This document shows, piece after piece, positions 3,300 through 63,882 of a DNA stretch of 64,000 bases. Each line of letters starts with the position of its first letter. Position 1 is the first letter of the stretch. The position numbers were made by a program, and so were the translations under genes. Origin of the DNA: Morinoia aosen. Lineage: Eukaryota > Arthropoda > Malacostraca > Amphipoda > Talitridae. The stretch is taken from positions 35,027,732 to 35,091,731 of the forward strand of contig CM059572.1 in the NCBI GenBank assembly GCA_030386875.1. The letters are read 5' to 3'. Under the pieces are notes generated by a model that had not been told where the DNA came from, ran no database searches, and was given only the letters and a program-made list of their open reading frames with translations.

Positions 3300-4268
3300 G
3301 AGATAAATAATATCAAAATATTGCACATAAATGCTCGCAATCTCAATGGTAAAATGGATGACGTACGAGTAATGTTGATCACTAACGATATCGATATGTT
3401 ATGCATATCTGAAACATGGTTCGATTCACGAGTCGAAAGCTCATATCTCAGCATTACCGGGTACAAATTGTACCGTTATGACGGAGTCAAGAGTAAGAGA
3501 GGTAGCGGTTCATGCATTTTCATCAAAGATGTCTACTCTACATCCTTAGTTCCGATAAAAGAAAAATGCGATGACATAGAAATGGTTTGGCTCAATGTTC
3601 AAGTAAACAAACACAAGTCTTTCATTATCGGCAGTCTTTACAGACATCCGTCAGCATCTCTTCGTCCAACATTAGATTTCATTGAAAATACGCTTAGATC
3701 AATCTCTGCAGCCAAAAAGTCTTTCTATGTTTTCGGAGATTTTAACGTAGATCTGACAAATAAAAACAATCTGCTAAGCAAGATGCTGCACAGACTTAAT
3801 CTTTCTCAAATGGTCCAAGAACCAACGCGAATTACCAACACTTCCAAAACTCTTCTTGACCTAGCAATTACAAACAATCCCCAAGCAGTACTCAGCACAG
3901 AAATCTTACCGTCCTTTTCTGATCACCATTCGGTAGAATGCCAAATAAATATTGCAAAAGAGAAACAGAAATATAGTTACATTACATATCGCATGAAAAA
4001 CCACTACTCCCCTGAAATATTTCAAGAAAAGCTATTAGACAGATGGAGTGAATTTCAAGGCATGGAAAACACCGATGATGTCAATCTACAAGTTTCGCTT
4101 TTCACCGAAAATTTCGTATCAGCTCTTAACGAATGCGCACCTTTCATTACGAAGAAAGTTGAGCCAAGAATTTCTAAATGGATAGCAGATGAGATAAAAC
4201 GGTTGAGCAGAGCTAAAAGAAATTTGCAGCGTGAGTACAAACTGAATAAATCAGACAGTACGCGTTGA
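3300..4268 (+). pseudogene. LINE endonuclease (EEP/APE-type) domain
   Basis: An open stretch of 315 codons carries the EEP order: HINARNLNGK near the start, ISETW, GSCIFIKDVY, GSLYRHPS, FGDFNVDL and FSDHHSVE. These match the metal- and DNA-binding blocks (N, E, Y, D/N, DH) of APE-like endonucleases that nick the target for target-primed reverse transcription. The frame continues upstream through a TGA into the OTU-like part and downstream through a TGA at 4266-4268 into the RT, suggesting that one long ORF once encoded all three. The domain itself looks nearly intact. Confidence 0.85.
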
Positions 4269-31042: not shown

Positions 31043-31974
31043 TCAACTGCTGGGTCTTAGGACCCTTGATCTGCCTCGCCTTACCGAGGCTGTGGTAGGG
31101 GCACGCTCTTTGGTGCCGTCTACACCGTTTCCTGATCTCTTGTTGATAGTGCTACTAGTTTTCTTTGTTCGGGTTTGAGGGCCAACAGCGTTCTCTTTAC
31201 CACTGTCTGTCGCATTAATATGTTTCCTCGCAGTCTTCTTAGGTTTATTTAAAAATTCATCGGTAGCATCACCAGTAACCTGAGTTTTCTTAGAGCTTGG
31301 ATTGCCTCTGCTTCTCGATGCTGCCGCATTCACGGTAAGGCGAGAGTTATCGTCTCTTTGGGAGCAAACCCCAGACTTGCAAGACCTGCTAGAAGAAGTA
31401 CATGATTTTGTTGAATTGTCATCATCACTAGATTCGTCGTCTAAAGCTATTTCCCCGAGTTTCTTTCCAATGTCCATAAGATTGGAATCAGTGTCGCTCT
31501 TGGCTGGAGGATCATTTTCAGGTGACTCAGGAATAACAACAATTTTGGGAAGGACGACATGATCCGTCGTCTTAGCCATCGATCGAGCACGTATGTTCCC
31601 TCGAGAAGACATCGACTTTTTACAACTCCTTGCGGAAGGTTTCTTATAACATTTCCCAACATCGGCCGCTCCTGCATCGTCGTCTACATCTGAATCAGAG
31701 GAATCAGCGAGGGCTTTCTCCCCATTCACAAGCCTGTTTTTAACATCACTCGCAGAGGAATTATTTTGCACACTCATACCAGAGCCCCCGACCATTTCTG
31801 GGCTGTCGTCGGAGTCGTTGCCGTCTTGCCGAGGAGATCGGGGGTAGTAACGGGGGACGCGGTGCAGGGGAGGAGGGTGCCGGCTGAGTGTGGGCGAGCA
31901 GTGGGGCGTCACGGCGCCCACTGTGGGGCACGCCACGGGGCTCGCCAGCGGCACTGCCAAGGTCCTCGTCTCGT
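31043..31974 (-). CDS. ESPL1: Terminal separase-like exon: acidic, Ser-rich linker
   Basis: 309 residues, acceptor TTGCTCAG, phase-matched to the previous exon. Disordered: ADSSDSDVDDDAGAAD, IPESPENDPPAKSDTDSN, DDESSDDDNSTKSCTSSSRS, then basic segments (NKPKKTARKH, RRGRSR) that could act as nuclear localisation signals, and stop TGA. SP sites (PRSPRQ, PESPEN) are possible Cdk targets. A strong donor-like TCG|GTAAGG lies 34 bases before the stop and could bypass it if further exons exist. Confidence 0.65.
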
Positions 31975-34900
31975 CTGAGCAATGGGAAATGAGTGTAAAA
32001 ATTTTTCTGAACATTTATCTACAAAATTTGAGGAGAATACTAAAACATGAGTTGGATTCTGGAATGAAGAGATGGAATTGTCACTATAAGTCATTTGGTA
32101 TCTGATAGTAAAAATTAACTACTTTACTTTGGGGTCTCTAGGACGCGTGAACTTGTGCACGGTAATGAAGTAGTAACTGACTATTTATAAATAACTCTAA
32201 ATAGTTAAAAAATATCCCATTCATTCCCAAGAAATTCAGTCTGCCTCTAGGAAGACATTCACAGCAACAACACCAGCTCATGTTCAACATTACAATCAAA
32301 TTAATTTTCATCTTGCTGGCAAGAAACATTACCGAAAGATTACACAAAAATTAGCGACGTAATGCACAAAAATTTTCATAATATATATTTTATACACAAT
32401 ACATATTTTATTATGACATTGTGTTATTAGCTTTACTTTTTCAGCAGCCTTCCATTAGCTAGGCTGCGTTTGTCGGACAAGCTTAATTGTGTCTATCAGA
32501 AATTTAATGCAAGAAAAATTCCCCATTGGATTATTTAGAATGAATTGCTGTGAATACTTCTGCATTAATTGCTCAACGCGCATGACTTACTCGTTGTAAA
32601 TTCACCAAATTTTTACAAGTTATGTGACGGCTTATTTTCAAGAATGTTTCTTTCATCATCACAGAAAATCAATATGAATCACTTCAATTTGAATACGTAA
32701 ACTTTGTACAACAGCAGGCGATTAGGTTAAGAGCAAACTTTCCAAGATTTATATACGTGCAAAGTAAATTTCAAAGGCTTTATATTCCAGCAGATTTTAA
32801 AGCAAACGTTCTGAATTGCAGCAAGTCCAGGAGCCAGTTAGGAAACAAGGTATCTGGAATGGAAAAATCATGATTTCTATTCTGTCATATTTTGACTACA
32901 AAATTGAGGTTTACCAACAGATAGTTGACAAGAAGCTGTTGCTACCTGTCAAACAACTGCACCTAGCTGAGAAAAAGCTGTTGCCAGCTGAGAAAAAGCT
33001 GTTGCCTGCTGACAATAAGCTCTCAACATTTGACAAGAAGCACCTGCCAGTAGCCAGGAAGCACCTGCCAGTAGCCAGGAAGCCCCTGCCAGCCGACAAA
33101 AAGCACCTGCCAGCCGACAAAAAGCACTTGCCAGCCGACAAAAAGCACTTGCCAGCCGACAAAAAGCACCTGCCAGCCAACAGGAAGCACCTGCCAGCCA
33201 ACAAAAAGCACCTGCCAGCCAACAGGAAGCACCTGCCAGCCAACAGGAAGTACCTGCCAGCCGACAGACAGCACCTGCCAGCTGACAAGAAGCAGTTGCC
33301 AGTAGCCAGGAAGGAGTAGCCAGTTGCCCACCTCTGGAGGTGGCGACCAGGTGACGGTGGGCGTTGAGGAGGTGGCGCGCCTGGAGCAGCAGCGGCAGCA
33401 GGTGGCAGTGGTGCCGCCACACGCTCTGTAAGGCAACACGCAGGGCTTGTAGGGCAGTACAGTACAGTACAGTAACGAATAAAATTTCTCAGTAATTCAA
33501 CTTATAAGGTAAGACTTTACAAAAAAAATAAAGTTAAAGACAATACCATTCATGATAGTAGGATTTACTATATTACATAAGGCATTCAAACTGCAATGTG
33601 CTGCTGATTTCCACAAATTTTAAGTCAATTTTTTTGACATTCATTTAATATTTTTTTCACATTACCTAATCCTGTTTTACTTATAAGAAATTCGTATGTT
33701 TGCTGCTTAGTCAAAGTAAAAACTCAATACTGTAGTCTACTCCTTCACAGACCAATTGGTGACCAGATATATCCGAGTTAGTATATCAAGACTTTAATTT
33801 GTACATTAAGCGTTGACTTCTGATGAGAAAGCACACTCAATTTGTGAGTTAGAAGTTGATTTCTGTTGAGAGAGCACACTCAATCTGTAATTTAGTTTTG
33901 GATTTCTGATAACAAAGCACACTCAAACTGTAAGCTAGACGTTGATTCCTGTTGAAACAGCACACTTAGTCTGTATATAAGATGTTAATTTTTGATGAGA
34001 AAGCCCACTCCATCTGTAAGTTAGAAGTTGATATCAGTTGCGAGAGCGCACTGTAGCAACAAGTACCTGGAGAGGGAGGGCATGTGAGGCAGTGACCGCC
34101 GAGTTGCAGAGCTGCAGCGCCTCTGCCCACCGGTCGCGTGCCACCAACACCTGCACCGCACTGCGCTGCACGCTGCACCAGCCCTGCTCACCACACACCC
34201 CTCTCACAACATGCGCTGCCATTTCTACTAGTGCGTAAATATGTCCTTTAGCTTAATCCTTCAACGTCAAAGAGGATTTCAAAATCCAATTTCATGTTTT
34301 ACTTCTTGTGAAGTTTGTGCCGTAATGTGTTCTTCAAAGTTCATCATCAAGTGGCAGTTCTTTCCTCATCCTGATATTGGTGACTACTTGATGCAGGTGA
34401 CAGTTTAATGATAGCAGTTGTCATAACGGTAATATGAATACAAAATTGTGACGTTAAAGGGTTAATATCCCTCATGCAAGCCACTGAGGCATGTCCTCTT
34501 TTAACAGCTGGGGCGAGAAGTTATTCTCACACAGCAGCGCATCATTCTAATGATATATGAGTTTACGTGTACACTCAAGGGCAATAGTCTAATGGTTTAG
34601 CAGTTGATATCAGCTCAGGGTATTTGTGCACAGCAGCGCACCAGTCAAATGGTATTCAACAAGTACCTTATTAACTCATGCAACCTGCTGAAGCACCATA
34701 TTTGTTCTATCACTCCAGTCATTCTCACATTTCTGAAAAGTTGGGGTAATGAAGGAGTGTGAAGGAGGAGAGAGTAAAGGGGAGGGGAAGGAGAATTTTA
34801 CAATGCCATACAGAATTTAGGTACTTTAAAGCTCCTGAAACTGGAACATGCTCTAACTGGATCTTCCTGTAACTGGTCATCCTCAAATGTAAACAACTTT

Positions 34901-37900
34901 ATCGTAAACTAGAACAACTTCATGCCTAAATTGTACTATGATTCCGCGAAGATGCGCTGCATTGAAATATTATAAGTTACCATTTCATTTAAATGCTTCA
35001 TCAATTGTACTATTTCCCTCACCTTACAGAATATGTTTGCAATTCAGTACATTTAATATTGTCAATATACAGTACTCATAAAAATGACACCGAATGCAAA
35101 ACGAAAGCCAGTGAATTTAACAATGCTTGATTTATGAGAAATTCAATAAAAATATACAACGGCATGGATATGAGAGGTCTAATGAGTGAGTGCGAGATTG
35201 AGAGAACTGTTTTTTCAACATCAGAAAGCAGAAGTATGAGCAATTGAAAGCTATCATTTGTGAATGAAAAAAAAAAATAATAATTCTATAGTCAGTTGCA
35301 TAAAAGTAAAAATAGGTAAAATGCAGATCAGTGCTAAAAAAAAATATAATTACCAAAATTTGAAAATCTTTTACTTTGACTATGCACACCTTAAACTTGA
35401 ACAGCACATTGTAACTGGCATAAAGCATTCCGAAGAGAGGAAGAAGGAAGGCACCATTTAGTATGGAGACGAAGGAACGCGGAATCTGTGCAGAAAGGGC
35501 ATAGAAACCGTAAGTTGAGAAAGAAGTTTATGAAACAAGACTAAAGTTGAAAAAGAAAGTAGTAGGTGCTGACAGCAGTGAACAAAAAAAAGGTGGTCCT
35601 TAACATAACAAAAAACATTTTGTTTCAACAAAAGGAAAGCCTACGTAACTCTCAGCTCGGGCCCTTTTTACATTTTCCCCCTGGGAGTGCCAATTTCCAA
35701 AGATACAATAGTTGTATCCTCCTAAGATGGGAATATTTTGAGTTAAAATGAACTCGTCAGGTGATCAGCCAGAATTAACATACCACGATAACGGCATTTG
35801 TTGCACAGACAGTGTCACGCTCAGCATCTTCGCCGGTGCCCAAGATGCTGGTGATGATCCTGCAGTGGTGGAGAGCGTCTCGCTGCATCAGGTTGTACGC
35901 AGCGCTCGCCTGCCGACATGACAGCAATTTACAAGGGATTGTTATGGGACACTGTCCTGAAAGCTAAGAAATTAATTAAAGTAGCAGAGATAGGGGTTTT
36001 GTCACGGGACGCCGTCCTAACAGCAAGAGAAATTAATTAAGGTAGCAAGGATACAGGCTTTGTTATAGAACACTATCTTGATAGTCAGGAAATTAATCAG
36101 AGTAGCAAGAATATGGGCTTTATAGAACACAATCCTGACAGCAAGAGAAAATAACCTAACTAGCAAAGATATGGGCTTTGCTGCGGAACACTATCTTGCA
36201 AGTCCGTCCGTGAAATGAATCTACGTAGCAAGGAAAAGAGCTAGCTAGAATATTGTGGTGATTTAAATAGCAACGGAGCAAAACCAAATGACCAAAGAGA
36301 GAGGATGAGGAAATGAAAAATAAATAGAACAAGAACTAAAAAAGGATACAATAATCAACGTAAAATAACAATTCTTTGAACAAAGTAATGTGGAAGACTA
36401 CAGTAAAAAATAATTATCCCTATAAAAATAAAAATAAAAAAGTTAAAATAAACATGTGTAGGAATGTCAACACACCTACAAACACAGCTTCAAAAAATAC
36501 TTCTTGATTTCTTTACCGCAGGGTACTATACCATTTACGAATTGATTTGCTCCAAATGAATTTTGGTTTGATCCTGGCGAAAATAGAATTGCTCCAAGTG
36601 AATTTCAATTTACTCCTCGTGAAAATAGAATTGCTCCAAGTGAATTTCAATTTACTCCTCGTGAAAATAGAATTGCTCCAAGTGAATTTCAATTTACTCC
36701 TCGTGAAAATAGAATTGCTCCAAGTAAAATTTGATTTGCTCTTTTCAAATTTAAAATCATTCCATAAGAATTTTATTGGCTTTATAATGCTATTTGATAG
36801 AATCTTAGTGAAATATACTCGTATTTTTCTTTGTGAAGTAATTTTTCTTTGTGAGTTTTTACAGTGTAATTTACAAAAAAATACAGGGTATGATTTTCGT
36901 TGTATGAACCATTACACAAATCAAACCATTACATTACACAAATTACACAAAGTTAATAATTAATTAACATTAATTAAAATGAATATTGTATTTTTACAAT
37001 AATATATAACAAAAATATATAACATGTTATAGAAATAGTTTTTAAATAGGTTCATTTTTCAATAGGAAAGAGCGTTTAGAAGAGTGCCTGAGAAATAGTT
37101 GTGTCTATTTGTATAAATGTGATTGCTACCTGCAGTCCTATGTTGGAAGCACCACACTCCAGCAACTTATTCGTCACAGCCAACACTCTGGTATCTCCCA
37201 TAGAAACGGCCGTCCATACTCATCTCCCTTCCAGTCAGCCACTAGAGATCACTAACATAGTTCAAACCACCCTTTCAAAAATTTCAATTTCTCCACACTT
37301 TGTAGAACTGCAGAGCAATTTGACTTTAGAATGTTGGAACCATTGTTCTTTTTTACCCATAAACATCAGCTAAATAATGACCAAAGTGCGATGAAATTAA
37401 ATATTGCCGCAACTGTGTAAATATGAGTGTGTTTGAATGTGTGTATGTGTGCAGTTCTGTTACTTTGTGTACATAGATGTTATTGTGGTTTGGTTTGATT
37501 GCTAGGATTTAGGTGTATGTGTACGTATGGTTCCGAATGTTTAAGAGAAATTGTGTTTTTATTTTTAATGGTTAGGCAAAACTAATTTTCGATGTAGGTA
37601 TAGTGATATTAATTTCTTATAGTTTTTTGCAATTTATTCATTATCGTTTTTCGTTTCTTGTTCTACAGCACTGATGACGGAATCAGAGATTCTGAAACGT
37701 TTGCAATTAAAATAATGTTCCCTTATATATTGTGGCTTCTTTTCATTTTACGTTTTAGATTTTCCAAAAATCGCCCTTTTAATATTACAATATATAACAA
37801 TATGTAGTTTTTTAAATATTTTAAATACGCAAGTTAAAAAATTTCCATAATTTTGATACAAAACTATAGCAATCTAAAAATTATTTGGATCAACTGCAAA

Positions 37901-40900
37901 TTAAAAAAGAGCAAATCAAACTTCACTTGGAGCAATTCTATTTTCACGAGGATCAAATAAAAATTCACTTGGATCAATTCTATTTTCACGAAGAAAAAAT
38001 TAAAATTCCCTTGGAGCTATTCTATTTTCACTAAAATCAAATCAAATTTCACTTGGAGCAAATCTATTTTCACGAGGAGCAAATTAAAATTCACTTGGAG
38101 CAATTCTAATTTCGCGAGGATCAAATCAAAATTCATTTGGAGCAAATCAACTTGTAAATGGTATAGTACCCACATCCACAACTGCCACAAAAACCTTCAC
38201 TGGTGGACCTGCTCTGTCACTCACCACATCAACGGTGTCTTGCGCAGCCTGCCATCGCGCCCCTTGTCTGTGGTAAGACGCGAGCATTGCCCCCGTGCTG
38301 AGGTAAACTTCGCACAACAGCGGGAAATACGGGTCAAGTACACAGCTCTCGCGCGTATCTGCGCCCGCTTCTTCAGCAGGGTCATAAGGGCTTCGCCATG
38401 CGGGCAAATGTAAGGCAGTTTCCCGGTGTCCCAAGGAAGGAGATCCCAGGCAAGTGCTCCTTTCCCCGTCGAGCTTATAGCGATCTACTTTGGTGCTAGG
38501 GTGGCTGAGAAACTTGAGTCGAGACTTGATGGCTATCCACTGTGTCCCAAGCTTGTTTTGAGCATCAGCAAGGGCAAATTTGTCCTTGCTTTCCTCATCA
38601 TCAGGGGAAGTTTCGCCGCTGCTAGACCAGGCCTGACGCATCGCCTCAATGCGCACGGTCGGCATCGATGCAGAAACGGCATTAACGTAAGTGTTCTCTT
38701 TGCCACTCCTCGAAGATAACTTGCGTAAAGCTTTGTTCATCTTTGAGCCACTGGTTAGTGGAGTGGCATCAGCAGACCTGGTCTTGTTGAGGTTGCTAGG
38801 AGTGAGCACAGCACTCCCGATACTGGGGCTGAGATCGAGGGCCTGGACAGAGCGAGGCAGCCGAGCAGACAGCAGCATCAGCAGCGAGTCCAGTTTGACG
38901 CGACAGTCGTCCAGCTGGTCGCACATCAGGTCCACCTCGGCGAGCAGAGCAATGGCCACCGCAGCTCTGCACACACACACTCAACATTGTTACACGAGTC
39001 CAAAAACCGGGTGAAAAGGGCTGAAAAACCGAACAGCAGTGAACAGAAAAAAATGCCCTTCACAAAACCAAAAACCATTCTATTTCAACAAAAAGAAGGC
39101 GTATTTAAATTCTCTGCTCGGTGATAAGTCGGTATCTCACATTTCTTCCTTGGGAGCGCTAATTCCCATAGATACAATAGTTGGATCTCCTTTGAAAGGA
39201 TTCCATCAATTTGAGACAAACAGAATGTCCACAAGTAATGCTGTAATAAGATTGTGATCAAGCCTTCTTTATTCATGTCTTGTTTACACACCACAATTCC
39301 ATCAAAGAACGCAAGAAGCCACCAACAACAGAGGGGAAAAAGAGCTCCAAGAGTTTAGAACAAGTTGATCACACGCCCCTGCTAGCTAACGACTGCAACG
39401 TAAGTCAAGACTTCTCGGACATATTTTGCACCCGAGTTGGGTTGAACCTAAATGAAACAATTTTGTGTTTCCTAACCACTGATGCTCAAATGATGAAACT
39501 CTTGAAAAATTATTTATATATAATTGCCAAGTTATTTTTCAATAAATCATCTTTTAATTATTATTTTTTTAATTATTCTTTCATTAACTGTTTAATTATT
39601 AAGAAATTATGTTTTTAATATATAATTAGCTAGTTTAATCTTGCCAAGTTCCCTAAATGCATAAAAAGGACAGACCTGTAGGGCAAAACATCCTCCTGGG
39701 CGGCAGCGAGCGGAGCCTTGAGGTAGGCGCGAGCGAGACGCGGTTGTGCAGTGAGCAGCGCCAGACGACCCAGCCATGCTGACGTCAGCTGGTGTAGCCA
39801 GGATACGCGCCATGCCCATTGCAGGTCTGCAGTCGTGGTGTGTTTTGCAATGGGAGTATTGCGGTGATTTGGTATAGTAATATTTCAGTAATTTGCCATT
39901 TCTTACACTTATGGTGAAGCCCAATCGTGCAATTAGTACTGGGTATACTACCATGATCTATATACTTAATAGCAAAACTCAAAATTTGTGCGAGTCCGTT
40001 TGGAAAATTGGCTGAGTCTACATGGTCGAGTGAGGTATTAAATTGAAGCCACTGGTGTCTATATTTGCAGAAAACTATTTATTTAAATTTTTTTTATTTT
40101 TTTTTATTCTGATTTTTTTCTTCTTTATTTCTTTATTTTTTGATTTACTTTTTTTTTTATTTTTATTTATTTTTTATTTATTAATTTTTTTTTCCATTTT
40201 ATTTTTTATATTTTTTTTTATTTTTTTTATTTTTTTTTTATTTTTTATTTTTTTTTATTTTTCTTATTGTTTATTTTTATTTTATTTATTTTTTATTTTT
40301 TTATTTTTAGGCAAGTCGGACAACCCGATATTCGGGTTGAACCGGCTAGTTTAGTAATATATTAAGGTTAGCACATTGTATGACTGCTTTTTCAACACAC
40401 CAAGATACGCAAAAAATGAAATATGATAAAAAGAAAACAACGGAAGAAGCAAACGCCAAACAAAATTTCTCCACTGATACTACTTTTATATCAAGAAGTA
40501 AAGAAGGATGGCATCACTGAGCACTGTGACAAGCAAGCAGACTTGATATAGAGTGCTCGGCAGCACCTCTTACCGGGCACGTCCAGGGCGGTGTGAGTGA
40601 GGGCAATGGCTTCCCTCGCCGAGATCTGCGCCACTGCCACCTGGAAGTAAACAATATAACTGATGAGATAAGGCAAACAAGGTGGCTTAGGAGGTAAAAA
40701 ATTTAAGCTGGAGTGGTTAGGTAAGCAAGGTGGCTTAGGAGGTAAAAAATTTAAGCTGACTGCCACCCCATACATTAGGACATACGTCCAAACATGAGTG
40801 AGAGAAGTAAATAAGTCGCACGTTTGTTATCGAGAATTCCGGACTGTATTTCGTACTATCGAGCCAAACAGTAAGGTTGAACTAGAACAGTTTGATAAAT

Positions 40901-55900: not shown

Positions 55901-58900
55901 ACAAAACATGTTTTTGTACTAAAAAATCATGACTAAAAAAACATGAATATATTTATGAGACCTAAAATGGTGTTTTTCAAAAATTATGTTTTTTTTACAA
56001 ACAATGATGTATAAGAAAACCTGGATATGAATATATTTTATGCAACCAAAAAACCATGCTGTTTTATTTCAGCATTTTTCATAAAAAATTGTCTTAAAAT
56101 CATGGATATCAACATATTTTATGTTACTAAAGAAATCATTGTTTTATTTTAACATGTTTTTTCATTAAAAAGTTATTATGATTCATTTTTTGGTCACGAC
56201 TTTTTTGTAAAAAAAAAACACCCCCTCAGGGGGATACAACTATTGTATCTATGGGAACTAGCGCTCCCAGGAGGATAATGTGAGGGCCCAAGCTGAGAGT
56301 TAGGTAGGCCTCCTTTTTGTTGAAATAAAATGCTTTTGTTATGTTGAGGACCACCTTTTTTCGATTCACTGCTGTCCTGTTTTTCAGCACCTAATACTGT
56401 CTTCTTCAACTTTGATCTTGTTTCATAATCTTCCTTCCTCTCTTTGGATTGCATTTGTTGCTGGGTAGGGAGGCTAAAACTAATGACTAATCTAATCTGT
56501 AAAAAAAACATGGATATTAATTTATTTTAGGTGACCAAAAAAAACATGCTTTTTGAAAAAAAGATTTTTTTACAAAAAACAGGTGTTATTAAATTTAATC
56601 TGACCAAAAAAACATGACATTTTAAAAACCATGTTTTTTTACAAAAAGTCATTAATATCCATGTTTTTATGTCATGAGTTTTTGGTAAAGAAAACATGAT
56701 TTAAAAAAACCAGCATGGTTTTTTTTGGCACATAAAATATATTAATATCCACATTTTTTAATCATGATTTTTCTGTAAGAAGATGTTTTAAAAAAAAACA
56801 GCATGGTTGTTTATGGTAAAATAAAGTATATTAATATTTGTGTTTTTTAGTCATGACTTTTTTGTAACAAAAACATGAAAAAAATAGCATGGATTTTTTG
56901 GTCACATAAGATATATTAATATCCATTAGAATCATACCAGGTCTTAGAATAAAATATCCACAAAGAATCTATTCACTCTATAAAACCTTTCGGAGACTAG
57001 CTCCATCCTCAGTAAGTCATTCAGTCAAATGTTTTTCAAAGGAACAGTGAAAATTCATTGTCCATTTCACCAAATTTTACTGAATGACTGAGGATGGAGC
57101 TGGTCTCCAAAAGGTTTTATGGAGTAAATAGATTCTTTGTAGATACTTTATTCTAAGACCTAGTACAGTTCTAATAAACATGATTTCAATATTAACAGCA
57201 TTCTTTGTTTATAAGTTTCTAAAGACAATTCGATTAAAGAAAAATAACTTTCCTGATATACATCCGTGTTTTTTTTGTCATGATTTTTTTAAATGTTTAA
57301 AAATATAACAATTTTTGGTCCCATAAAATATAATAGCTATGTTTTTTTAGTCAAGATTTTTTGGTTAAAAAACAATGTTTTAAAAAAACAGCATTGGATT
57401 TTTAAGGTCACATAAATATATTATTATCCATGTTTTTTATTCATAATTTTTGTATAAACAACATGTTTTTTTTTTAAACAGCATGGTTTTTTAGTCACAT
57501 CTCTATCAATGACCATAAGTAAAGATATGTTATTATAACACACCATTTTAGGACTTGAAGGTCATTCACATGTATTGTAAAATGAAAGAAATATCAAAGC
57601 ATGAAACCTCAGAAAATGAAAAATTTCATAAAACCATGGAAAACCACCAATTAAGAAGTATGTTGTTTTATTTTATAATCTGACATGAAAACACATAATG
57701 TAATGTGGTTCTTTTTCTTGCCGAGTTATTTTAAGACAAAATATCTAAAAAAAAAAATATGCACGTTTTTTTGGCCACGGTTTTTTTTGTAAAAAAAACG
57801 TGTTCTTTTTTTAAAAAAACGGCATGGTTTTTTAAGAGTCACATCTCTACCCCTGTGATACAGTTGAACATGGCGACAGATACGAGCCGTATGGCACATT
57901 CTAGGTGATGAAGAGCATGAAGAACGCTCTTTTTGAGTGTGCACAAATAAACAATATTGGACAAAATATTGTGAAACGAGTCATGCAGACCACTACAGAT
58001 AAATATTTGTTTAGTTTAACCAGTTTAATTTTTGGAAGGAACGTAACATCTAATTTTCAGCTCTCAAATGTCACAAGGAATTGCTCACGCTGCAAACCCT
58101 TGAAAAAGGTTAGTCAACCCAACTAAAATCAACAGCAAAAGTTACATACATGTGTGTGTAATATCTTCAATATTAAGGATTGAATAAAAAATACCAATAA
58201 GCCCACTCTCAGTCACCATTCCATTTTTGTCACCACCTCAGTCACTCTTTTTTTTATAAATCTAACTCCCTGGGCCTTTACTTATCACATCACTTACTTC
58301 TAAGCATTTATTTTGAGAGTGAATTGGAAATTTTATAAATGAAAATTGTAGTAGTGCCATGCCTAAAAAATATAAAAATCATGCTAAATTCAACAAAAGA
58401 ATATATTGGAAACTGATATATGAATGTTCAATAAACTTTGATATAAAAGTACATACTGAAGCATCAAACAAAACAGTCATTCTTACAGCATCATCACAAC
58501 TTACAAGTTAAAAACTATACCCAGAAGATAATATTTTTGAGAGCACACTGAACTACCCGCCCATTTAATGTTGAATACGTTTTACAGTTACAACATAATT
58601 GATTTCATGATCTTGCACCAAAGGAATGACGAAATCTCACTCAGATTATGACCGTCTACCAAGCACTAACATCTTCTGCCCCAGGGTACGCAGAACATGC
58701 CCGGCAACAACTAACCAGGCACTAACAACAGCCTCTGCTCCATATGCTAAGCATGCCCAGCAACAACTAACCAAGCACTAACAACAGCCTCTGCTCCATA
58801 TGCTAAGCATGCCCAGCAACAACTAACCAAGCACTAACAACAGCCTCTGCTCCATATGCTAAGCATGCCCAGCAACATCTAACCAAGCACTAACAACAGC

Positions 58901-61900
58901 CTCTGCTCCATATGCTAAGCATGCCCAGCAACTAGTGATGTACCGATGTATCGGTATCGGCAGTATCGGCCATTTTTAGTGGTATCGGTATCGGCAAAAT
59001 CCGGCCGATACTTTACCGATACTTTCCAAAAATACGTATTTTATCATTCAAATGAAGGTCATAAATCATGAAAGTAAAAGTATTTAACCTAATAATACCC
59101 GTTGTGTGTTTATTTATTCATTTATTTATTTGGTGTCTGCGTTGTGTGAGTTTGCGGTATCATGGACACAGAATTCCTCAGTGTAACATTAAAAGATGGC
59201 GTTTCCATGCATTTAAATATTTTACATTTGATCAGGATAGGTTTTGTTAGGATAGGATAGGTTAGCTTAGATTAGGATAGGCTAGGTTAGCACAGGTTAG
59301 GTAATACTGTCAGAATTTTTTCTCGGGTCCGCCTAGCTTAACGATGACATTGTCCATGGAATCTCCGCGGGTCCTGCTACCATCTAATAATACCCTTGGT
59401 TTATTTGGAGTCCGCTTTTTCCATTTTCTCTGTCACGCTCATGAGGAGAGTTATAGTGACCGTATCTGTGCTACGAGTTTCACCAGTGCGTAAGAACAAG
59501 AATATTTTTATCACGAGCGCTGTTAGGATGAATACATTCGTTGGGCATCACATTTGGAAAATTTATTCAAGAAAGTTAGTGAGTCCCGTAATTTTTGACG
59601 GGCTGTGCGTACTTGTAATCAAATAAAGAGCCTATTCATACTTAGTGAATTAGATAGCTAACTGTTGAATTATAGCGTTCAATCAGGCCCACTAACTGAA
59701 TTCACTACTTTGAATTCCCGATGAGTCACGGTCATAACTGAAAGCTATGTAAAATGAATAGTTAAACCCTGTAGCTACATAAAATTTTTATACTTTTACG
59801 ACTAAACCTTTATAGTTATTATTATTATTATATAAGAACGTTTTAGCGTCCCTTAATTGCACGACAAAGATGTTCTAAGAGAGGTAGGAGGAAGGCACCA
59901 TTTAGTATGGAGTTGAGGGAACGTGGAATCTATGCACAAGGTGCACAGAAACAGGAAGCTGAGAAAGAAGTTTATGAAACAAGAAAAAGTTGAAGAAGAA
60001 AGTAGTAGGTGCTGAAAAACAGGACAGCAGTGAACCGAAAAAAGATGGTTCGTAACAAAACAGAAACCTATTCTATTTCAACAAAAGGAAGCCTACCTAA
60101 CCTTTAGCTCAGGCCCTCACATAGTCCCCCTGGGAGCGCTAATTCCCATAGATACAATACCTGTATCCCCATGAGGGGACCTTTATAGTTTGACCTAATG
60201 TCCATATCTTAAAGTATGTGACAGGCTAACAAAAACCAAACCAATATAAAGTTGAAGGTGCATATGAAAGTTTTTGTGAATTTAATATAGAAATTGCCGA
60301 AAATTCTATTTTAATTTAGCTTGTAAATCGCCAAATATTACGAAGCTATTAATTTATTTTAACTTAACATGCATATCACCGTTCATTACAAATCTTGCAT
60401 TTTTCTTCTATGCTAAGATGTTTGAACAATTCACGAACAATCTTATAGTTCAATACATCTGAACGGGTCAGTTGATTGCTTTCATCGCAACTTGATGAAT
60501 TTAAAAACGAGGAAAATTCCAATGAACTTAATCATATTTACTAGGAATACGTTTCGGAGTCCAGCTCCATCATCAGTTCGTAAAATTAAAATTCATTACG
60601 ACTACAATAAAAGAAAAAATAAAATGTTGGATACAGTCATTAACCCTTTAACGTCCGAATTTTTGTACTCATATTACCGTTAACACAACCACCGTCACTA
60701 AACTGGCACTGGCATCAGGCAGTCACCAATATCAGGATGGGATAGGAACTGCCACCCGGCAGAGAACTTCAAAGAATACATTAGGGAACTAATTGAACAA
60801 GAAATACTATATATTGAGGGCATTTTTGAAAGAGGACACTGGTGTCCTCTGGGGCGTTAAAGGGTTAAAGAAAATCACGTAAACAAAAAAATCAAAACAT
60901 GTCCCAGAGAAAGTAAAATCGACATGATCTACTTCCAATTTACGATGGGTAGGAACTGTCAGAATTGTTGAGGGCCAGTTTTCGTTTAAAAATATGTAGC
61001 GACTCTGAAATTCTGAGGTCACATGTAGTTGAAGCCGAATCTAAGATCTTGAAGTCCGCAGAGGATATCGGTTCGTTGCATTTTACTGCGTGATTACGTA
61101 CGAATTGTGCGAATTCATTCCCCGTGCGGAAGCTTCAACCCCGATGTTCGGCCATTCTGATGTAAAAATTTTGAGCCGTAATGCCGACGTACGATGATGT
61201 GCACTGCACACAACTGTAAGAATAAATCAGAAAGGCTCTTTCTCCATCAAAAGCGTATCCTTGTACCGGAATTGTTTAATTTTATGGTTGCTTCATTTTT
61301 CCGGTACAAGGATACGCTTCCGATGGAGATGCGAACCTCGATCTCTGATTTATTTTTAATAGTTATACAGTTGTGTGCAGTGCACATCATCGTACGTCGG
61401 CATGACGTCACGAAATTTTTAAAACAGAATGGTCGAACATTGGGGTCGAAGCTTCCGCGCGGGGAACTAATTAGCTTACTCCTCACACTCCGCAGTACGT
61501 AATCACGCAGTAAAATGCAACTAAATCTTAGATTCGGCTTCAACTGCATGTGACCTCAAAATTTTAGAGTTGCTACATATTTTTAAACGAAAACCGGCCC
61601 TCAACAATTCTGATAGTTCCTACCCATAACAAATTGTAACTAAATAGTAATCTTGTCGGTTTTAAATTCTTCACCTTATAGATGGTTGCGTGTTTGCGGA
61701 TATGTTCGGTTTCGGGGCTTACCGAATTTCAATATTTTCTTTCGCCAAAGTATGTACTCGTATTTGGTGTGAATAATACGAAAATGACAATCTTTTTTTG
61801 GAGAAACTATTGTTTTGGTCCCCTTTTGGAGCCAGTTACTATTATAGCTTGTCTAGATTACGTTGCAATATGATTAGAAACACATATCTATTGAATGGAT

Positions 61901-63882
61901 TTCATTTTGTTGTTTTTCTCAACAATATAGTTAACATTGCAAGAGCATTTTATTTTTCACAATCGGAAACTTTTTTGTCAATATTTTTGTATTATTAGAT
62001 ATATAAGGAAATAATGTTATTATAAAGCCCATGTAGGAGTTATAATGGTTTTATTTTAATACAAGTGTGCACGGCCCGCCAAAAATGGGATTCAATACTT
62101 TTCATGAACGAATTTTCGTGATGTAGATGATAAACAAATACAGTATATCCATCCTAACAGTACCCGTGATGAAAAATATTTTTCGCACCGTTGAAACTCG
62201 TATCACAGATACGGCCATTATAACTATCCTTATGAGCGTGAGTGACAGAGAAATGGAAGAAACAGACACCAAGCAAATAAACCAAGGGCAAGGGTATTAT
62301 TAGGTAGCAGCATGACCCATTGAAATGCCGAGGACAATGTCATCGTTAAGCTAGATGGACCCATGGAAAAATTCCGGCAACATTATCTAACTTATGCTAT
62401 CCTAATTCTATGTCGTGACTCGCACCGCCGTAAAGCACGTTCACGACGCAAAGGCCTAGCGATCGTCATTACATGGTAGCAACTGCGGTTCTTGTAGACC
62501 CTACACCACTAATGCGTTTTCCACTGTTGCCAATACGTAGAACGGAAAGTCAGGTAGGTTTAAAATGTTTATGCCGAGCACATATGTACAAGAACACACA
62601 AAGCTCTCTTGACTCGGAGTTCCCCTCTGGTGAAAAATCACCATTACTCAAAAATGATTACTTCGGATACAGCTATTCACCAAATTACTATTTTTAATTT
62701 AATGTCTTTTAATTATTCAATTTGGCCTAAAAGCTGCACAAAAGCGACATGGTTAGGAAAATGCGCAAATTACGGCGATCACAACAACCTATCCAATACT
62801 ACTAACCTATCCTGATAAAATTTCAAACATATCAATGCATGTACAGACGAACTTTCAATGTTACACTGAGGAATTCGGTCTCCGTGATACCGCAAACTCA
62901 GACATCCTATGTTTCTCAAGAAGCGGACACCAAACTAATACATAAACTAACATACAACGGGTATTATTAGGTTAGATGATTGTAAAAGTATCGGTATCGG
63001 TAGTAGTATCGGTCAAAGTATCGGTATTTTCAAGTATCGGAGTATCGGTATCGGCCAAAAAATGGGTATCCGTATCGGTATCGGCCAAAAAAATGCTATC
63101 GGTACATCACTACGGCAGCAACATCTAACCAAGCACTAACAACAGCCCCTGCTCCATATGCTAAGCATGCCCAGCAACATCTAACCAAGCACTAACAACA
63201 GCCTCTGCTCCATATGATAAGCGTGCCCAGCAACATCTAACCAAGCACTAACAACAGCCCCTGCTCCATATGATAAGCGTGCCCAGCAACAACTAACCAA
63301 GCACTAACAACAGCCTCTGCACAAGGCACTGCTAAGCAAGAACACCAACAACTAACCAAGCACTAACAACAGCCCCTGCTCCATATGCTAAGCATGCCCA
63401 GCAACATCTAACCAAGCACTAACAACAGCCCCTGCTCCATATGCTAAGCATGCCCAGCAACATCTAACCAGGCACTAACAACAGCCTCTGCACAAGGCAA
63501 TACTAAGCAAGAACACCAACAACTAATCAAGCACTAACAACAGCCTCTGCTCCATATGCTAAGCATGCCCAGCAACATCTAACCAAGCACTAACAACAGC
63601 CCCTGCTCCGTATGCTAAGCCTGCCCACCCACAGTGAACCGAGCACTAACAACAACTCCTGCTCCAGGCAATGCTAAGTAAGAACGGCACCAACTAACCA
63701 AGGTTGCGGTAGTGAGGTGCAGTCTCAGCATCGAGGGGCAGCAAAGCCCGCAAACTGGACTCAGCTCTGGCGCTCCAGGAGGCAGCTCTGCACACGTCTG
63801 GACCACTATCCACCGTCGAACTTGCTTCATGGTTCAGCTGAGCCACCAAGGTTTTGTACCAACGCTGCAAGCTTCCAACCAC
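31043..63882 (-). CDS. ESPL1: Separase-like protein, 17 exons, 5'-partial, without protease domain
   Basis: Exons in order of transcription: 63699-63882, 54768-54892, 51943-52173, 49900-50027, 49019-49214, 45982-46449, 44994-45173, 43405-43567, 42886-43040, 41500-41664, 40574-40640, 39676-39826, 38195-38966, 35784-35909, 34067-34183, 33332-33425, 31043-31974. Phases agree throughout and the sum is 4254 nt (1417 aa). The start lies beyond the window. Assignment rests on collinear resemblance to vertebrate separase helical repeats: CGNLGVLCYRSGHYTSAAA, WFKLKKEAVKMGSSALQ, SPAAPAMVCRGITAVGQF, DTNTVVLAQVALAYRHL, LGRLALLTAQPRLARAYL and FLSHPSTK, then an acidic Ser-rich linker. Separase cleaves cohesin at anaphase; this part binds securin. 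The reading ends in the linker, before the expected His/Cys protease domain. Drosophila splits separase into Three rows and Sse, so this may be a Three-rows-type half; an unseen further exon is the alternative. The 34067-34183 exon start and the 38195 donor are the least certain limits. Confidence 0.72.
33041..33310 (-). repeat. 21-bp minisatellite next to an exon donor
   Basis: About 13 units; in gene sense each reads GCTTTTTGTCGGCTGGCAGGT-like and contains a donor-like CAG|GTGCTT or CAG|GTACTT. It starts 22 bases after the true donor AGAG|GTGGGC (33332). Because 21 is divisible by three, all frames look open; these ORFs are artefacts. Confidence 0.9.
33790..34060. repeat. ~50-bp tandem repeat, five units, abutting an exon
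   Basis: Units of the kind GTTGATTTCTGATGAGAAAG followed by CACACTCAATCTGTAAGTTA, about 80-85% alike. The array ends within a few bases of the donor of exon 34067-34183. Confidence 0.75.
34253..34465. mobile_element. piggyBac-type MITE with TTAA duplication
   Basis: TTAA at both ends (34253-34256, 34462-34465), inner ends TCCTTCAACGTC and GACGTTAAAGGG, and an interior matching the copies at 60640-60868 and 43250-43396 (TCATCCTGATATTGGTGACT). TTAA target sites are the mark of piggyBac. Confidence 0.7.
35428..35733 (-). mobile_element. SINE-like repeat (family A), antisense-numbered copy
   Basis: Minus-strand copy: GATACAACTATTGTATC-type start near 35715-35730, CCCGAGCTGAGAGTTACG, TGCTGTCAGCACCTACTACT, GCATAGATTCC-like 3' part. 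It is in the sense of the separase-like gene, upstream of exon 34067-34183. Confidence 0.65.
35930..36240. repeat. ~65-bp tandem repeat, about five units, next to an acceptor
   Basis: Repeats of GGGCTTTGTTATGGAACAC, TATCCTGACAGCAAGAG and AAATTAATTAAAGTAGCAAG follow one another with 75-85% identity, beginning about 20 bases from the acceptor at 35910. Confidence 0.7.
36521..38171. mobile_element. Foldback-like element with tandem-repeat arms
   Basis: Ends are inverted repeats starting GGGTACTATACCATTTAC. Each arm consists of a 42-bp unit (TTGCTCCAAGTGAATTTCAA, then TTTACTCCTCGTGAAAATAG) repeated about four times on the left and five to six times, inverted, on the right. Inverted arms made of short tandem repeats are the hallmark of foldback elements. 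The ~1.1-kb centre has no transposase but carries a hammerhead-like core at 37671-37698. No clear target-site duplication was found. Confidence 0.75.
37671..37700 (+). ncRNA. Hammerhead-like core inside the foldback-like element
   Basis: CTGATGA, a 16-base segment that pairs as GGAATC/GATTCT around AGA, then GAAACGTTT. This is the standard stem II arrangement between the two conserved core strands. Stem III and the cleavage triplet are not evident, so self-cleavage is unproven. Similar blocks close Penelope-like elements. Confidence 0.45.
38195..38966 (-). CDS. ESPL1: Largest internal separase-like exon
   Basis: 257 codons. Begins AAVAIALLAEVDLMCDQLDD, matching the last repeats before the separase mid-region, followed by a Ser/Lys-rich segment (RKLSSRSGKEN) and KSRLKFLSHPSTK, which aligns with the conserved NFLSH block of vertebrate separase. 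It ends near PVK|GTTTTT. The donor is weak and only 23 bases from a transposon end; GCAG|GTCCAC 15-18 bases earlier is an alternative that breaks the phase. Confidence 0.7.
39019..39195 (-). mobile_element. SINE-like repeat (family A), 3'-truncated
   Basis: Minus-strand copy showing GGGAATTAGCGCTCCCAAGG and TTTCTGTTCACTGCTGTTC; the 3' half is missing. In sense with the separase-like gene. Confidence 0.6.
40070..40311 (-). repeat. A/T simple-sequence tract full of AATAAA
   Basis: The plus strand is almost pure T with scattered A, so in the sense of the separase-like gene this intron reads AATAAAAAATAAA over about 240 bases, with well over 15 overlapping AATAAA hexamers. The long ORF seen here is an artefact. 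Confidence 0.9.
40678..40758. repeat. 48-bp tandem duplication beside an exon acceptor
   Basis: CAAGGTGGCTTAGGAGGTAA and the following AAATTTAAGCTG occur at 40678-40710 and 40726-40758 with no mismatch seen, 37 bases upstream (gene sense) of exon 40574-40640. Confidence 0.85.
42550..42850. repeat. ~136-bp imperfect tandem repeat beside an exon donor
   Basis: TGCCTACTGG-TGGTCAG and CACTATGAATACTCCCT recur at about 42553 and 42689, with CATAAACGAGAT sub-repeats; a third partial unit reaches 42830, about 55 bases from the donor at 42885. Confidence 0.65.
43250..43396. mobile_element. piggyBac-type MITE fragment
   Basis: TGATATCGGTGACAACCTGA, GTTGTGATAACGGTAATGCG and the end GTTGAAGGGTTAA match 60640-60868 in reverse orientation. 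The left TTAA end is missing or eroded. Confidence 0.55.
43568..44993 (-). other. Separase-like intron, nothing recognised
   Basis: AT-rich intron between exons 44994-45173 and 43405-43567. No shared repeat was noticed. Confidence 0.35.
45174..45981 (-). other. Separase-like intron with weak direct repeats
   Basis: AAATTAGGAGGCTAGTTTT (about 45260) and AAATTAGGAGAGTAGTTTT (about 45356), each followed by a GCATGCTCAGG-like word, form an imperfect ~97-bp tandem pair close to the acceptor of exon 44994-45173. Confidence 0.45.
45982..46449 (-). CDS. ESPL1: Separase-like exon with Ser/Asn/Lys-rich insert
   Basis: 156 codons, phase 0-0. It starts VAYFKPDISIPKSLSPD, continues LNLLSFALSICDTVGSV, has a disordered stretch (SKLAAKTSQNLSAANKN) and ends with a helical PEWLETGADLHLWLMMALLQ. 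The low-complexity insert is longer than in the vertebrate protein at this place. Confidence 0.65.
46954..47235 (-). mobile_element. SINE-like repeat, diverged subfamily
   Basis: Minus-strand copy with an (ATA)n tail at 46954-46972, then (in its own sense) CACTTCGTGCGTAGATGC, CAGTCCATGCTCAATGG and a CAGGATTTCCTGTGTAAG-like block. The order matches the 3' half of the family; the 5' half is unclear. Confidence 0.45.
47236..48474 (-). other. Separase-like intron, nothing recognised
   Basis: Part of the intron between exons 49019-49214 and 45982-46449. It holds a local doublet GACTATGCAAAATCATAGT near 48040-48080. No coding signal. Confidence 0.35.
48475..49018 (-). repeat. 31-bp minisatellite repeating an exon-donor junction
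   Basis: About 17 units. In gene sense each is ATGTGTGCTCAG|GTAGTG then TACTGCTTATCCC. The first 12 bases equal the last 12 coding bases of exon 49019-49214, and the GTAGTG matches its donor GTAATG. The array starts at the exon border itself. Some units have TTAG or TCAG variants. Confidence 0.95.
50028..50222 (-). repeat. Minisatellite repeating an acceptor-exon junction (part 1)
   Basis: In gene sense units read AACATGCCTTGTGTGCAG|GG and TGTGGTGCTGTAACAAGG, alternating with shorter units (CAACATCCCGTGTGGTGCTG). GGTGTGGTGCTG equals the first 12 coding bases of exon 49900-50027, so the acceptor and exon start are multiplied. A solo-LTR-like insertion splits the array. Confidence 0.9.
50223..51086 (+). 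mobile_element. Probable solo LTR with GCAT duplication
   Basis: An 864-bp block starts TGTGGTGTTC and ends GAACCACCACA (TG...CA with short inverted ends). It is flanked by GCAT on both sides (50219-50222, 51087-51090) and sits between two parts of the same minisatellite. Inside is a 39-bp unit (GTGAGGAGGCTCGTTGGAAG) repeated about three times at 50598-50715. No internal coding region of an LTR element is present. Confidence 0.6.
51087..51225 (-). repeat. Minisatellite repeating an acceptor-exon junction (part 2)
   Basis: Continuation of the 50028-50222 array beyond the solo-LTR-like insert, with the same CATGTTGTCATGGTGTG and CACCACACCCTGCACAC words on the plus strand; two to three units. 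Confidence 0.85.
51846..51895 (-). pseudogene. Duplicated 3' end of a separase exon within the intron
   Basis: In gene sense it reads WFKLKREVVKTGSSTLQ| GTGTGTG, a near copy of the end of exon 51943-52173 (WFKLKKEAVKMGSSALQ|GTGAGG), offset by 97 bases. It has kept a reading frame and a donor but no acceptor of its own. Confidence 0.85.
51943..52173 (-). CDS. ESPL1: Separase-like exon with duplicated 3' end
   Basis: 77 codons in phase 0-0, ending WFKLKKEAVKMGSSALQ|GTGAGG. The last ~50 bases and the donor are repeated 97 bases downstream (51846-51895) in the intron with a few substitutions and a second donor CAG|GTGTGT. Confidence 0.75.
53700..53806 (-). mobile_element. tRNA-derived SINE
   Basis: On the minus strand GGCCGGTAGCGCGATCGATA resembles a pol III A box region, and GAGTTCTAATCTC about 50 bases later resembles a B box (GGTTCRANTCC type). 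The 3' part ends in TACATTTACTTACATTTA. A 3' fragment of the same repeat lies at 53970-54037, identical for some 60 bases. Confidence 0.6.
53970..54037 (-). mobile_element. tRNA-derived SINE, 3' fragment (or local duplicate)
   Basis: Repeats AATGTAAGTAAATGTACGAG to AAATTCACCGCACC of the copy at 53708-53772 exactly, then stops. Both are followed or preceded by ACATGTTGTAACAT, which suggests a local duplication rather than an independent insertion. Confidence 0.55.
54768..54892 (-). CDS. ESPL1: Separase-like exon boxed in by two hAT-like elements
   Basis: Reads VTCGNLGVLCYRSGHYTSAA then CLDACVALQDMYC: a TPR-like helical pair matching the SNLAYSFYSHKLYAEA region of human separase. Acceptor TATTACAG, donor CGG|GTCAGT. 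One transposon ends 115 bases after it, the other starts 92 bases before it in gene sense. Confidence 0.75.
55180..55597. mobile_element. Inverted-repeat element with ~105-bp arms
   Basis: CAGTAAAAGTGGTGGCAGAT on the left is matched by ATCTGCCACCACTTTTACTG on the right; pairing continues through CCACAATTACCTAGAGG and GGAGCCACAGAACTTATATT to ATTGATGGAGTCAAAATTCA. About 190 bases of unrelated spacer lie between the arms. Confidence 0.7.
56221..56497 (+). mobile_element. SINE-like repeat (family A), internally shortened
   Basis: CCCCCTCAGGGGGATACAAC start, GGGAACTAGCGCTCCCAGG, then a jump from the CTTCCTTCC area to TTTGGATTGCATTTGTTG, ending in TAATCTAATCT. Flanked by TGTAAAAAAAACA-type duplications (56206-56220 and 56498-56510). 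Confidence 0.7.
56926..57177. mobile_element. Inverted pair with degenerate hammerhead motifs
   Basis: Left arm TTAGAATCATACCAGGTCTT, AGAATCTATTCACTC, CTTTCGGAGACTAGCTCC; right arm the inverse (GGAGCTGGTCTCCAAAAGG, AAATAGATTCTTTG, AAGACCTAGTACAGTTCTAA). Each arm has CTGAGGATGGAGCT...CTCC(G/A)AAAGG, a mutated hammerhead core (CTGATGA and GAAAC expected). Likely remains of Penelope-like terminal repeats. Confidence 0.5.
57858..58659 (-). other. Separase-like intron, nothing recognised
   Basis: AT-rich sequence between hAT-like element 2 and the 56-bp minisatellite. No ORF or repeat of note. Confidence 0.35.
58660..58931 (-). repeat. 56-bp minisatellite (left part)
   Basis: About 4.5 units of GCTCCATATGCTAAGCATGC, CCAGCAACAACTAACCAAGC, ACTAACAACAGCCTCT. 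The same array continues at 63114 after the 4.2-kb insertion. In gene sense each unit has CTTG|GTTAG, equal to the donor junction of exon 63699-63882. Confidence 0.9.
59818..60178 (-). mobile_element. SINE-like repeat (family A) with 12-bp duplication
   Basis: Near-consensus minus-strand copy with (ATA)n tail at 59818-59832. ACCTTTATAGTT is perfect at 59806-59817 and 60179-60190. It lies in the centre of the long-inverted-arm element, hence is younger than that element. Confidence 0.8.
60551..60576 (-). ncRNA. Hammerhead-like core (best preserved)
   Basis: Minus strand: CTGATGA, then TGGAGCTGGACTCC with a 4-bp GGAG/CTCC stem II, then GAAACGTAT. Both core strands are intact. Flanking stems and the cleavage triplet were not established. 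Confidence 0.5.
60640..60868. mobile_element. piggyBac-type MITE, complete, TTAA at both ends
   Basis: TTAA|CCCTTTAACGTCC at the left, GGGGCGTTAAAGGG|TTAA at the right. 229 bp including TTAA sites. Related copies at 34253-34465 and 43250-43396 show it is a family. Confidence 0.75.
60930..61640. mobile_element. ~0.7-kb palindromic element, arms ~330 bp
   Basis: The left arm (CAATTTACGATGGGTAGGAA ... CAAAAGCGTATCCTTGTACC) is matched by the right arm in reverse (GGTACAAGGATACGCTTCCG ... GGTTCCTACCCATAACAAATTG-like end) with roughly 85-90% identity and a spacer of about 40 bases. The two ~100-codon ORFs here are mirror images of each other and are not genes. Confidence 0.8.
63114..63698 (-). repeat. 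56-bp minisatellite (right part) reaching an exon donor
   Basis: About ten units like those at 58660-58931, becoming more divergent towards the exon (63600-63698). Units contain CTAACCAAG (gene sense CTTG|GTTAG), the exact donor context of exon 63699-63882. Two units carry a CACAAGGCA variant instead of CATATGC. Confidence 0.9.
63699..63882 (-). CDS. ESPL1: Separase-like exon, first one in the window
   Basis: Reads GSLQRWYKTLVAQLNHEAS and ends LDAETAPHYRNL with one base carried over. Acceptor TGACCATAG, donor CTTG|GTTAGT. The donor is immediately followed by the 56-bp minisatellite, whose units contain the same CTTG|GTTAG junction. Confidence 0.65.

What the first reader, a model, noticed from the sequence alone, without database searches (positions are those of the whole stretch)
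31043..63882. Minisatellites in one gene are repeatedly seeded at exon-intron borders
In the separase-like gene several introns contain tandem arrays that begin at, or directly copy, the adjoining splice junction: 31-bp units with the donor of exon 49019-49214, ~50-bp units with the acceptor of exon 49900-50027, 56-bp units with the donor of exon 63699-63882, and a 97-bp duplication of the end of exon 51943-52173. Further arrays (33041-33310, 33790-34060, 35930-36240, 40678-40758, 42550-42850) lie within about 60 bases of exon ends. The non-random position suggests a shared cause, for example replication slippage or R-loop repair at splice junctions, or selection for spare splice sites. I know of no named system of this kind.
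Basis: partly seen in the sequence, partly recalled or inferred. Interest (0 to 1): 0.85.

Follow-up and report, generated by a model that had tools for sequence, protein, structure and literature searches.

The report
Minisatellites copying exon-intron borders ("mirages")
Short repeats in this gene's introns really do copy the neighbouring splice junctions, but the same thing occurs in unrelated genes of this genome, was described before in amphioxus as "mirages", and looks mostly like ordinary random tandem duplication that is tolerated at splice sites.

Summary
I found a fifth junction copy (40-bp units at the acceptor of exon 54892-54768). The exon model keeps one open frame over 15 exons. 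An independent sample (72 exons of myosin, dynein and separase genes of the same 1.99-Gb genome) shows the same structures in unrelated genes, best in a myosin gene (42-bp units, 11.6 copies, starting at a donor). It has a name: "mirages", reported in amphioxus. Excess placement at junctions depends on the null. It is strong if arrays may not enter exons. It is weak in the sample if a duplication may straddle the border by up to one unit (7 of 53 arrays, 3.2-4.9 expected, p 0.03-0.20). Junctions are copied no more often than intron interiors (window 5/36 v 80/587; sample 5/144 v 226/2924). Best reading: splice-blind tandem duplication, purged from exons, tolerated at borders. Spare-splice-site selection and Rogers-type intron birth are not supported. 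The name "separase-like" is unsupported.

The parts
48480..49031 (-). 31-bp array, 17 copies, copying the last 13 nt of exon E6 plus its donor
   Evidence: TRF; 17 copies aligned, AG|GT in 17/17; GT offsets 0,31,62...516
50015..50222 (-). about 91-bp array (two unequal half-units) copying the acceptor and first 13 nt of exon E5
   Evidence: TRF; exonic share 13 nt; genome search of 49990-50222 finds only this locus and the next part
51087..51217 (-). continuation of the E5 acceptor array beyond an inserted 864-nt element
   Evidence: TRF 51089-51165, read on the strand, 92% match of the array query at 51083-51215
63116..63702 (-). 56-bp array starting at the E1 donor (CTTG|GTTAG)
   Evidence: TRF; copies aligned; genome search finds two places, both in this intron
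58658..58932 (-). second half of the 56-bp array, split off by a 4.18-kb insertion
   Evidence: flanks share GTTGCTG
51843..51905 (-). 97-nt-offset duplicate of the end of exon E4 with its donor
   Evidence: 63 nt at 83%; 51 exonic nt
54879..54958 (-). two 40-bp units copying the acceptor and first 14 nt of exon E2 (not in the finding)
33032..33328 (-). 21-bp array beginning 3-18 nt after the E18 donor
   Evidence: TRF, exon end 33332
33812..34032 (-). 43-bp array 34 nt after the E17 donor (14 nt in the local TRF run)
   Evidence: TRF, exon end 34067
35939..36198 (-). 61-bp array 29 nt before the E16 acceptor
   Evidence: TRF, exon start 35909
42546..42842 (-). degenerate repeats (45- and 78-nt families) 43 nt after the E10 donor
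40649..40744 (-). two 48-nt units (75%) 8 nt before the E13 acceptor
63699..63882 (-). exon E1
   Evidence: open frame, phases
54768..54892 (-). exon E2, weak TPR_2 match
51943..52173 (-). exon E4
49900..50027 (-). exon E5
49019..49214 (-). exon E6
31043..31974 (-). terminal exon E19 with stop codon

Best explanation
These are mirage-type minisatellites. Short segments (about 18-125 bp) are duplicated in tandem at positions blind to splicing, then expanded by slippage or unequal exchange. Duplications inside exons are purged. Those straddling an exon-intron border are tolerated, because the outermost copy of the splice site still ends or begins the exon and all further copies lie in the intron. 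The array edge therefore coincides with the junction without any splice-specific trigger. Later insertions split some arrays. Shown: copies, positions, local origin of two arrays, occurrence in unrelated genes, near absence from exons, no fixed register. Inferred: the mutational mechanism and that splicing uses the outermost site.
For: Exonic share of the copies has no fixed register: 4, 14, 51, 13, 13 nt for five window junctions and 22 (47 in a wider alignment), 4, 15, 24 (27) nt for four sample junctions (the other 5 of 14 rows are void). TRF coverage is 0.9% (window) and 0.7% (sample) of exons. In the sample it is 5.5% in the first 25 intronic nt, 8.3% at 25-50, 11.6-12.7% at 50-200, 8-10.6% beyond, so it does not peak at the junction. 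Copy rate at junctions does not exceed interiors: 5/36 v 80/587, 5/144 v 226/2924 (one of the five rests on a donor called wrongly there and corrected). Placement null with overhang up to one unit largely accounts for the sample: 7 v 3.2-4.2 at 5 nt, 7 v 4.0-4.9 at 15 nt. The 56-bp and E5 arrays match only this locus (the tool warns that common words are skipped); the 31-bp array has elsewhere only 67-68% matches, to 14-bp arrays.
Against: Residual excess at junctions even with one-unit overhang: window p 0.003-0.019, sample p 0.03-0.20 at 5-15 nt and 10 v 5.2-6.1, p 0.02-0.05, at 30 nt. In the window coverage falls from 24-25% at 50-200 nt to 8% beyond 800 nt, though inserted elements dilute deep introns. 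No RNA, no polymorphism data, no relatives. Sample borders rest on profile matches plus splice-site scores; 15 of 144 were set aside by hand as uncertain and two donors reset by hand. Sample arrays cluster in a few genes, so they are not fully independent.
Confidence: 0.68

Rival explanations
1. Junction-directed seeding: something at splice junctions (R-loop edges, polymerase pausing, breaks) raises the local duplication rate, so arrays start there more often than blind duplication would give.
For: Placement excess in window (5-6 of 24 v 1.2-2.0) and a smaller one in the sample (7 of 53 v 3.2-4.9; 10 v 5.2-6.1 at 30 nt); coverage bump at 50-200 nt.
Against: No fixed register; no excess coverage in the first 50 nt of the sample; junction copy rate not above interiors; the window was chosen for the pattern.
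Confidence: 0.2
2. Selection for spare splice sites keeps junction copies.
For: AG|GT kept in 17 of 17 copies at E6.
Against: In the 31-bp unit many other positions are equally invariant; in the C11 42-bp array the G before GT is the most variable position, kept in 5 of 10 copies. By the periods and spacings only 2 of 10 junction-copying units (42, 18) are multiples of 3, so a spare site mostly shifts frame; reading on from E6 meets a stop within three units. The C11 42-bp array, by contrast, reads open for five units.
Confidence: 0.05
3. The introns themselves were born by tandem duplication of an AGGT-containing exon segment (Rogers/Hellsten model, or the mirage-to-intron model), and the arrays are remnants.
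For: E6|intron CAGGTAATGTACT resembles intron|E7 CAGGTAGCGTACT, and one C16 intron start resembles the next exon start (score 23; 0.15% of mismatched pairs reach it, but that donor is uncertain, 24 nt inside the profile match).
Against: Matched donor/acceptor pairs are no more alike than mismatched pairs: 17 window introns p 0.35, 45 sample introns p 0.32; same-register test p 0.24 and 0.12. Some sample introns may hide unmatched exons.
Confidence: 0.05
4. Arrays are parts of dispersed mobile elements that happen to lie near exons.
For: True for the 42-bp arrays at 36540-36725 and 37912-38145: 73 matches listed, 40 of 840 candidates scored, on 20 of 29 contigs.
Against: The 56-bp and E5 arrays were found nowhere else in 1.99 Gb.
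Confidence: 0.02

Closest known systems
'Mirages' of amphioxus (Adh3, globins BflGb6 and BflGb9, TnC; similar repeats in PGBD5; PMC3087553 section 16 read, PMC3902484 one passage; Canestro 2002 seen only as a reference)
   Same: Minisatellite-like tandem repeats spanning an intron-exon boundary, at donors and acceptors, units 10-160 bp, many copies carrying AG/GT signals, several genes of one genome
   Different: Another animal (arthropod-like by its EcKL exon; species not named); no RT-PCR, haplotype or somatic data here; arrays of up to about 26 copies; one or two split by insertions
Human IFI6 (6-16) minisatellite giving several splice donors (Turri 1995, seen as a reference and through one passage of PMC4526556)
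   Same: Repeat units at an exon end that carry donors
   Different: There, downstream units are used as donors; here use is untested and most units would shift frame
Internal tandem repeats at exon-intron boundaries of human segmental-duplication genes (PMC2812944, outline and passages)
   Same: Minisatellites of about 30 bp at exon-intron borders
   Different: There, repeat number varies between paralogues and can create introns; not tested here
Intron gain by tandem duplication (Rogers model; PMC4974935, abstract and introduction)
   Same: Duplication crossing an intron-exon boundary
   Different: Cross-similarity test negative here

Membership tests
mirage minisatellites | tandem repeat spans an exon-intron boundary, unit includes exon and intron nucleotides | tested here: met
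   5 of 36 junction sides in the window; several in the sample
mirage minisatellites | both 5' and 3' borders can be affected | tested here: met
   window: donors E1, E4, E6, acceptors E2, E5; sample: donors and acceptors
mirage minisatellites | several unrelated genes of one genome | tested here: met
   window gene, C11 myosin, C16 dynein
mirage minisatellites | regular splicing not disturbed | not testable with these tools
   no RNA data
mirage minisatellites | length instability between haplotypes or somatic | not testable with these tools
   only one assembly at hand
Rogers-type intron gain | intron 5' end resembles downstream exon start and intron 3' end resembles upstream exon end | tested here: not met
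   permutation p 0.35 (17 introns) and 0.32 (45 introns)
separase (gene name used in the finding) | Peptidase_C50 catalytic domain | tested here: not met
   3 matches, all on C24, none on C17; no separase family in a Pfam scan of 1049 aa, E1-E16

The most novel reading that the evidence does not exclude
In this genome splice junctions raise the local rate of tandem duplication, so that mirages arise about twofold more often at exon ends than blind duplication predicts, in many genes.
Probability: 0.2. Interest if true: 0.7.

Novelty: new member of a known kind. Interest (0 to 1): 0.38.

Why it matters
If mirages are common in an arthropod-like 2-Gb genome, they are not a lancelet oddity, and a chromosome-level assembly allows a real test of whether splice junctions attract tandem duplication, and how the spliceosome picks the right one of many near-identical sites. 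Even under the blind-duplication reading it is a caution for gene predictors, which face many equal splice sites at such borders.

Tried and rejected
Separase identity: Pfam, PDB phmmer and genome-wide Peptidase_C50 gave no support. Intron birth by tandem duplication looked promising by eye at E6/E7 and E1/E2 but failed permutation. Dispersal of the arrays as a mobile family: not found for the 56-bp and E5 arrays, true for the 42-bp arrays of intron 15. The other genome matches of the 31-bp array (four rows, three loci) are 14-bp minisatellites with a similar CAGGTAGTGTG core, not copies. A codon-usage scan for upstream exons of the gene in L004-L007 found mainly giant coding-like tandem arrays and no convincing exon.

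Limits of single calls. One search counts 36 sides of a model that includes an unconfirmed 48-nt exon (E16b), left out elsewhere; if the alignment must span the junction by 4 nt on both sides, it gives 4 of 36 against 12.6% of 587. In one search the clear C11 acceptor at 27527112 scores 28, below the cut of 30. One search is a first placement test with uncorrected borders (sample 8 of 53 touching v 3.0 at 5 nt and 4.0 at 15 nt, p 0.0085 and 0.03); replace it. In one search five of 14 rows (E17, E18, E10, C11 27527112, C10) are void because the query overlapped its own target, and the wide alignment is void for four more (E1, E2, C11 27532459, C16 437447), for which only the narrow one was used. 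First patching of loci used a wrong orientation and was redone. Of 113 profile-match rows (79 myosin, 31 dynein, 3 separase) 82 were given to and 72 lay in held stretches; 129 of their 144 borders were used.

Papers were searched, in an open-licence library. I saw no report of mirages in arthropods in those listings, but no search paired the word mirage with arthropods, one search showed 12 of 40 papers, and most listed papers were not opened.

Full report
What was checked. The window is C17:35027732-35091731 of a 1.99-Gb, 29-contig eukaryotic genome. The animal is arthropod-like: an ecdysteroid-kinase-like exon lies at 25407-25952 (inference). The gene in question runs on the minus strand. 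I built an exon model from splice signals and open frames. E1 to E16 (15 exons) read through without a stop and with matching phases, which is good support for the borders without RNA. E16 to E17 is out of frame, so one small exon is missing or a border is wrong there. The gene ends with a stop at 31043. The name separase is not supported: the catalytic domain is found only on C24, and the Pfam and PDB searches gave nothing useful.

The arrays. All four junction-copying structures of the finding are present. The 31-bp array repeats the last 13 nt of E6 and its donor 17 times. The E5 acceptor with its CAG is repeated upstream at -89, -180 and -1139, with half-units lacking the CAG between; the far part lies beyond an 864-nt element with TG...CA ends and a 4-nt ATGC target duplication (read by eye; not searched in the genome, since one search did not complete). 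The 56-bp array starts at the E1 donor. It is one array split by a 4.18-kb insertion whose ends are inverted (TAGTGATGTACCGAT / ATCGGTACATCACTA) and whose flanks share GTTGCTG. The end of E4 with its donor is copied at a 97-nt offset, 63 nt at 83%. I add the E2 acceptor (40-nt units). The five further arrays named lie 8 to 43 nt from modelled exon ends. Genome searches with the 56-bp and E5 arrays found only this locus, so they most likely arose on the spot; the tool warns that very common words are skipped.

Is it only this gene? No. I used profile matches of myosin heads, the dynein DHC_N2 domain and separase to find exons in about 17 other genes (my count from the map places), and set borders by splice-site scores: 72 exons, 144 junction sides, 149.5 kb. 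Five of 144 junction sides have a copy in the adjacent 600 nt at score 30 or more. One of those five rests on a wrongly called donor, corrected. The best is a myosin gene on C11: GTACTTCTACCTCAACCAG|GTTAGTGGCC... in 42-bp units, 11.6 copies, from the donor on. A dynein gene on C16 has an 18-bp array from one donor, a 55-bp array ending 4 nt before the acceptor of the same exon, and copies of another donor 101 and 226 nt downstream. The C11 gene also has 61-bp and 76-bp arrays at two acceptors.

Is the position more than chance? It depends on what chance means. Arrays that may not enter exons would touch a junction within 5 nt 0.24 times in the window and 0.75 times in the sample; observed 5 of 24 and 7 of 53 (both p<0.0001). 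But a duplication that straddles a border is harmless if the outermost copy still defines the exon, so arrays may overhang by up to one unit. With that null the expectation is 1.2-1.7 (window, p 0.005-0.017) and 3.2-4.2 (sample, p 0.03-0.11) at 5 nt; 1.6-2.0 (6 observed, p 0.003-0.008) and 4.0-4.9 (7 observed, p 0.09-0.20) at 15 nt; and 2.1-2.5 (6 observed, p 0.009-0.019) and 5.2-6.1 (10 observed, p 0.02-0.05) at 30 nt. The window was reported because of the pattern, so the sample is the fairer test. A second measure shows no excess: copies of a 40-nt window across the junction occur at 5 of 36 sides in the window gene against 80 of 587 interior positions (13.6%), and 5 of 144 against 226 of 2924 (7.7%) in the sample. 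Coverage by distance does not peak at junctions in the sample (5.5% in the first 25 nt, 11.6-12.7% at 50-200 nt, 8-10.6% beyond). In the window it is high over the first 400 nt and falls beyond, where inserted elements dilute the introns. Exons are nearly free of arrays (0.9% and 0.7%).

How it most likely works. The genome is rich in tandem repeats: 0.5% to 67% of each of 17 stretches taken by place. Copies take 4 to 51 exonic nucleotides, with no fixed register to the splice site (nine usable junctions). That fits duplication blind to splicing, removed from exons by selection, and tolerated at borders. Expansion by slippage or unequal exchange is inferred. Spare splice sites are unlikely: 8 of 10 units are not multiples of three, reading on from E6 meets a stop within three units, and in the C11 array the G before GT is the most variable position (5 of 10). 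Birth of the introns by tandem duplication is not supported. A residual excess of up to about twofold in the sample is not excluded and is my novel case.

What is known. Tandem repeats spanning intron-exon boundaries were named mirages in amphioxus Adh3 and found in its globin genes (PMC3087553, section 16 read); PMC3902484 adds TnC and similar repeats in PGBD5 (passage). PMC3087553 says that the Adh3 and RT-PCR data suggest regular splicing is not disturbed, and gives units of 10-72 and 150-160 bp. Human IFI6 has a minisatellite giving several donors (PMC4526556 passage and reference). Human minisatellites at exon-intron borders are treated in PMC2812944 (passages). So this is a new occurrence of a known kind, in another animal group and several genes, with splicing and instability untested.

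Noticed in passing
window 36515-38172: Inverted pair of 42-bp tandem arrays sharing GGGTACTATACCATTTAC ends: a dispersed mobile element with repeat-built termini; 40 of 840 genome candidates scored, 73 matches on 20 contigs.
   Followed up: partly
window 58933-63115: 4.18-kb insertion with inverted ends TAGTGATGTACCGAT / ATCGGTACATCACTA that splits the 56-bp array; hAT-like by recall only.
   Followed up: partly
window 50223-51086: 864-nt solo-LTR-like insertion (TGTGGTGG...CACCACA, ATGC duplicated) inside the E5 acceptor array, read by eye.
   Followed up: no
L007 (C17:35121732-35131731): 67% of the stretch is tandem array, including about 3 kb of open-frame repeats at C17:35124438-35127413.
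   Followed up: no
L048, L049, L050 (C6, C7, C20): Three separate 14-bp minisatellites with the same unit (CTGCAGGTAGTGTG in some rotation or strand), 69, 40 and 94 copies.
   Followed up: no
L055 (C11 27529911 donor): The 42-bp unit resembles the last 45 or so nt of the myosin exon itself and reads open for five units, as if the exon end had been duplicated in frame.
   Followed up: partly
window about 53705-53770 and 53970-54034: About 65-nt duplicate (GTGCGGTGAATTTAAGTTCCTGAG...) inside the intron after E2, read by eye.
   Followed up: no
window 2697-5312: Plus-strand open frames that look like a LINE with endonuclease and reverse transcriptase (family from recall).
   Followed up: no
window 35784-34224: Frame break between E16 and E17; a 48-nt candidate exon near 34730 keeps phase but does not account for the break.
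   Followed up: partly
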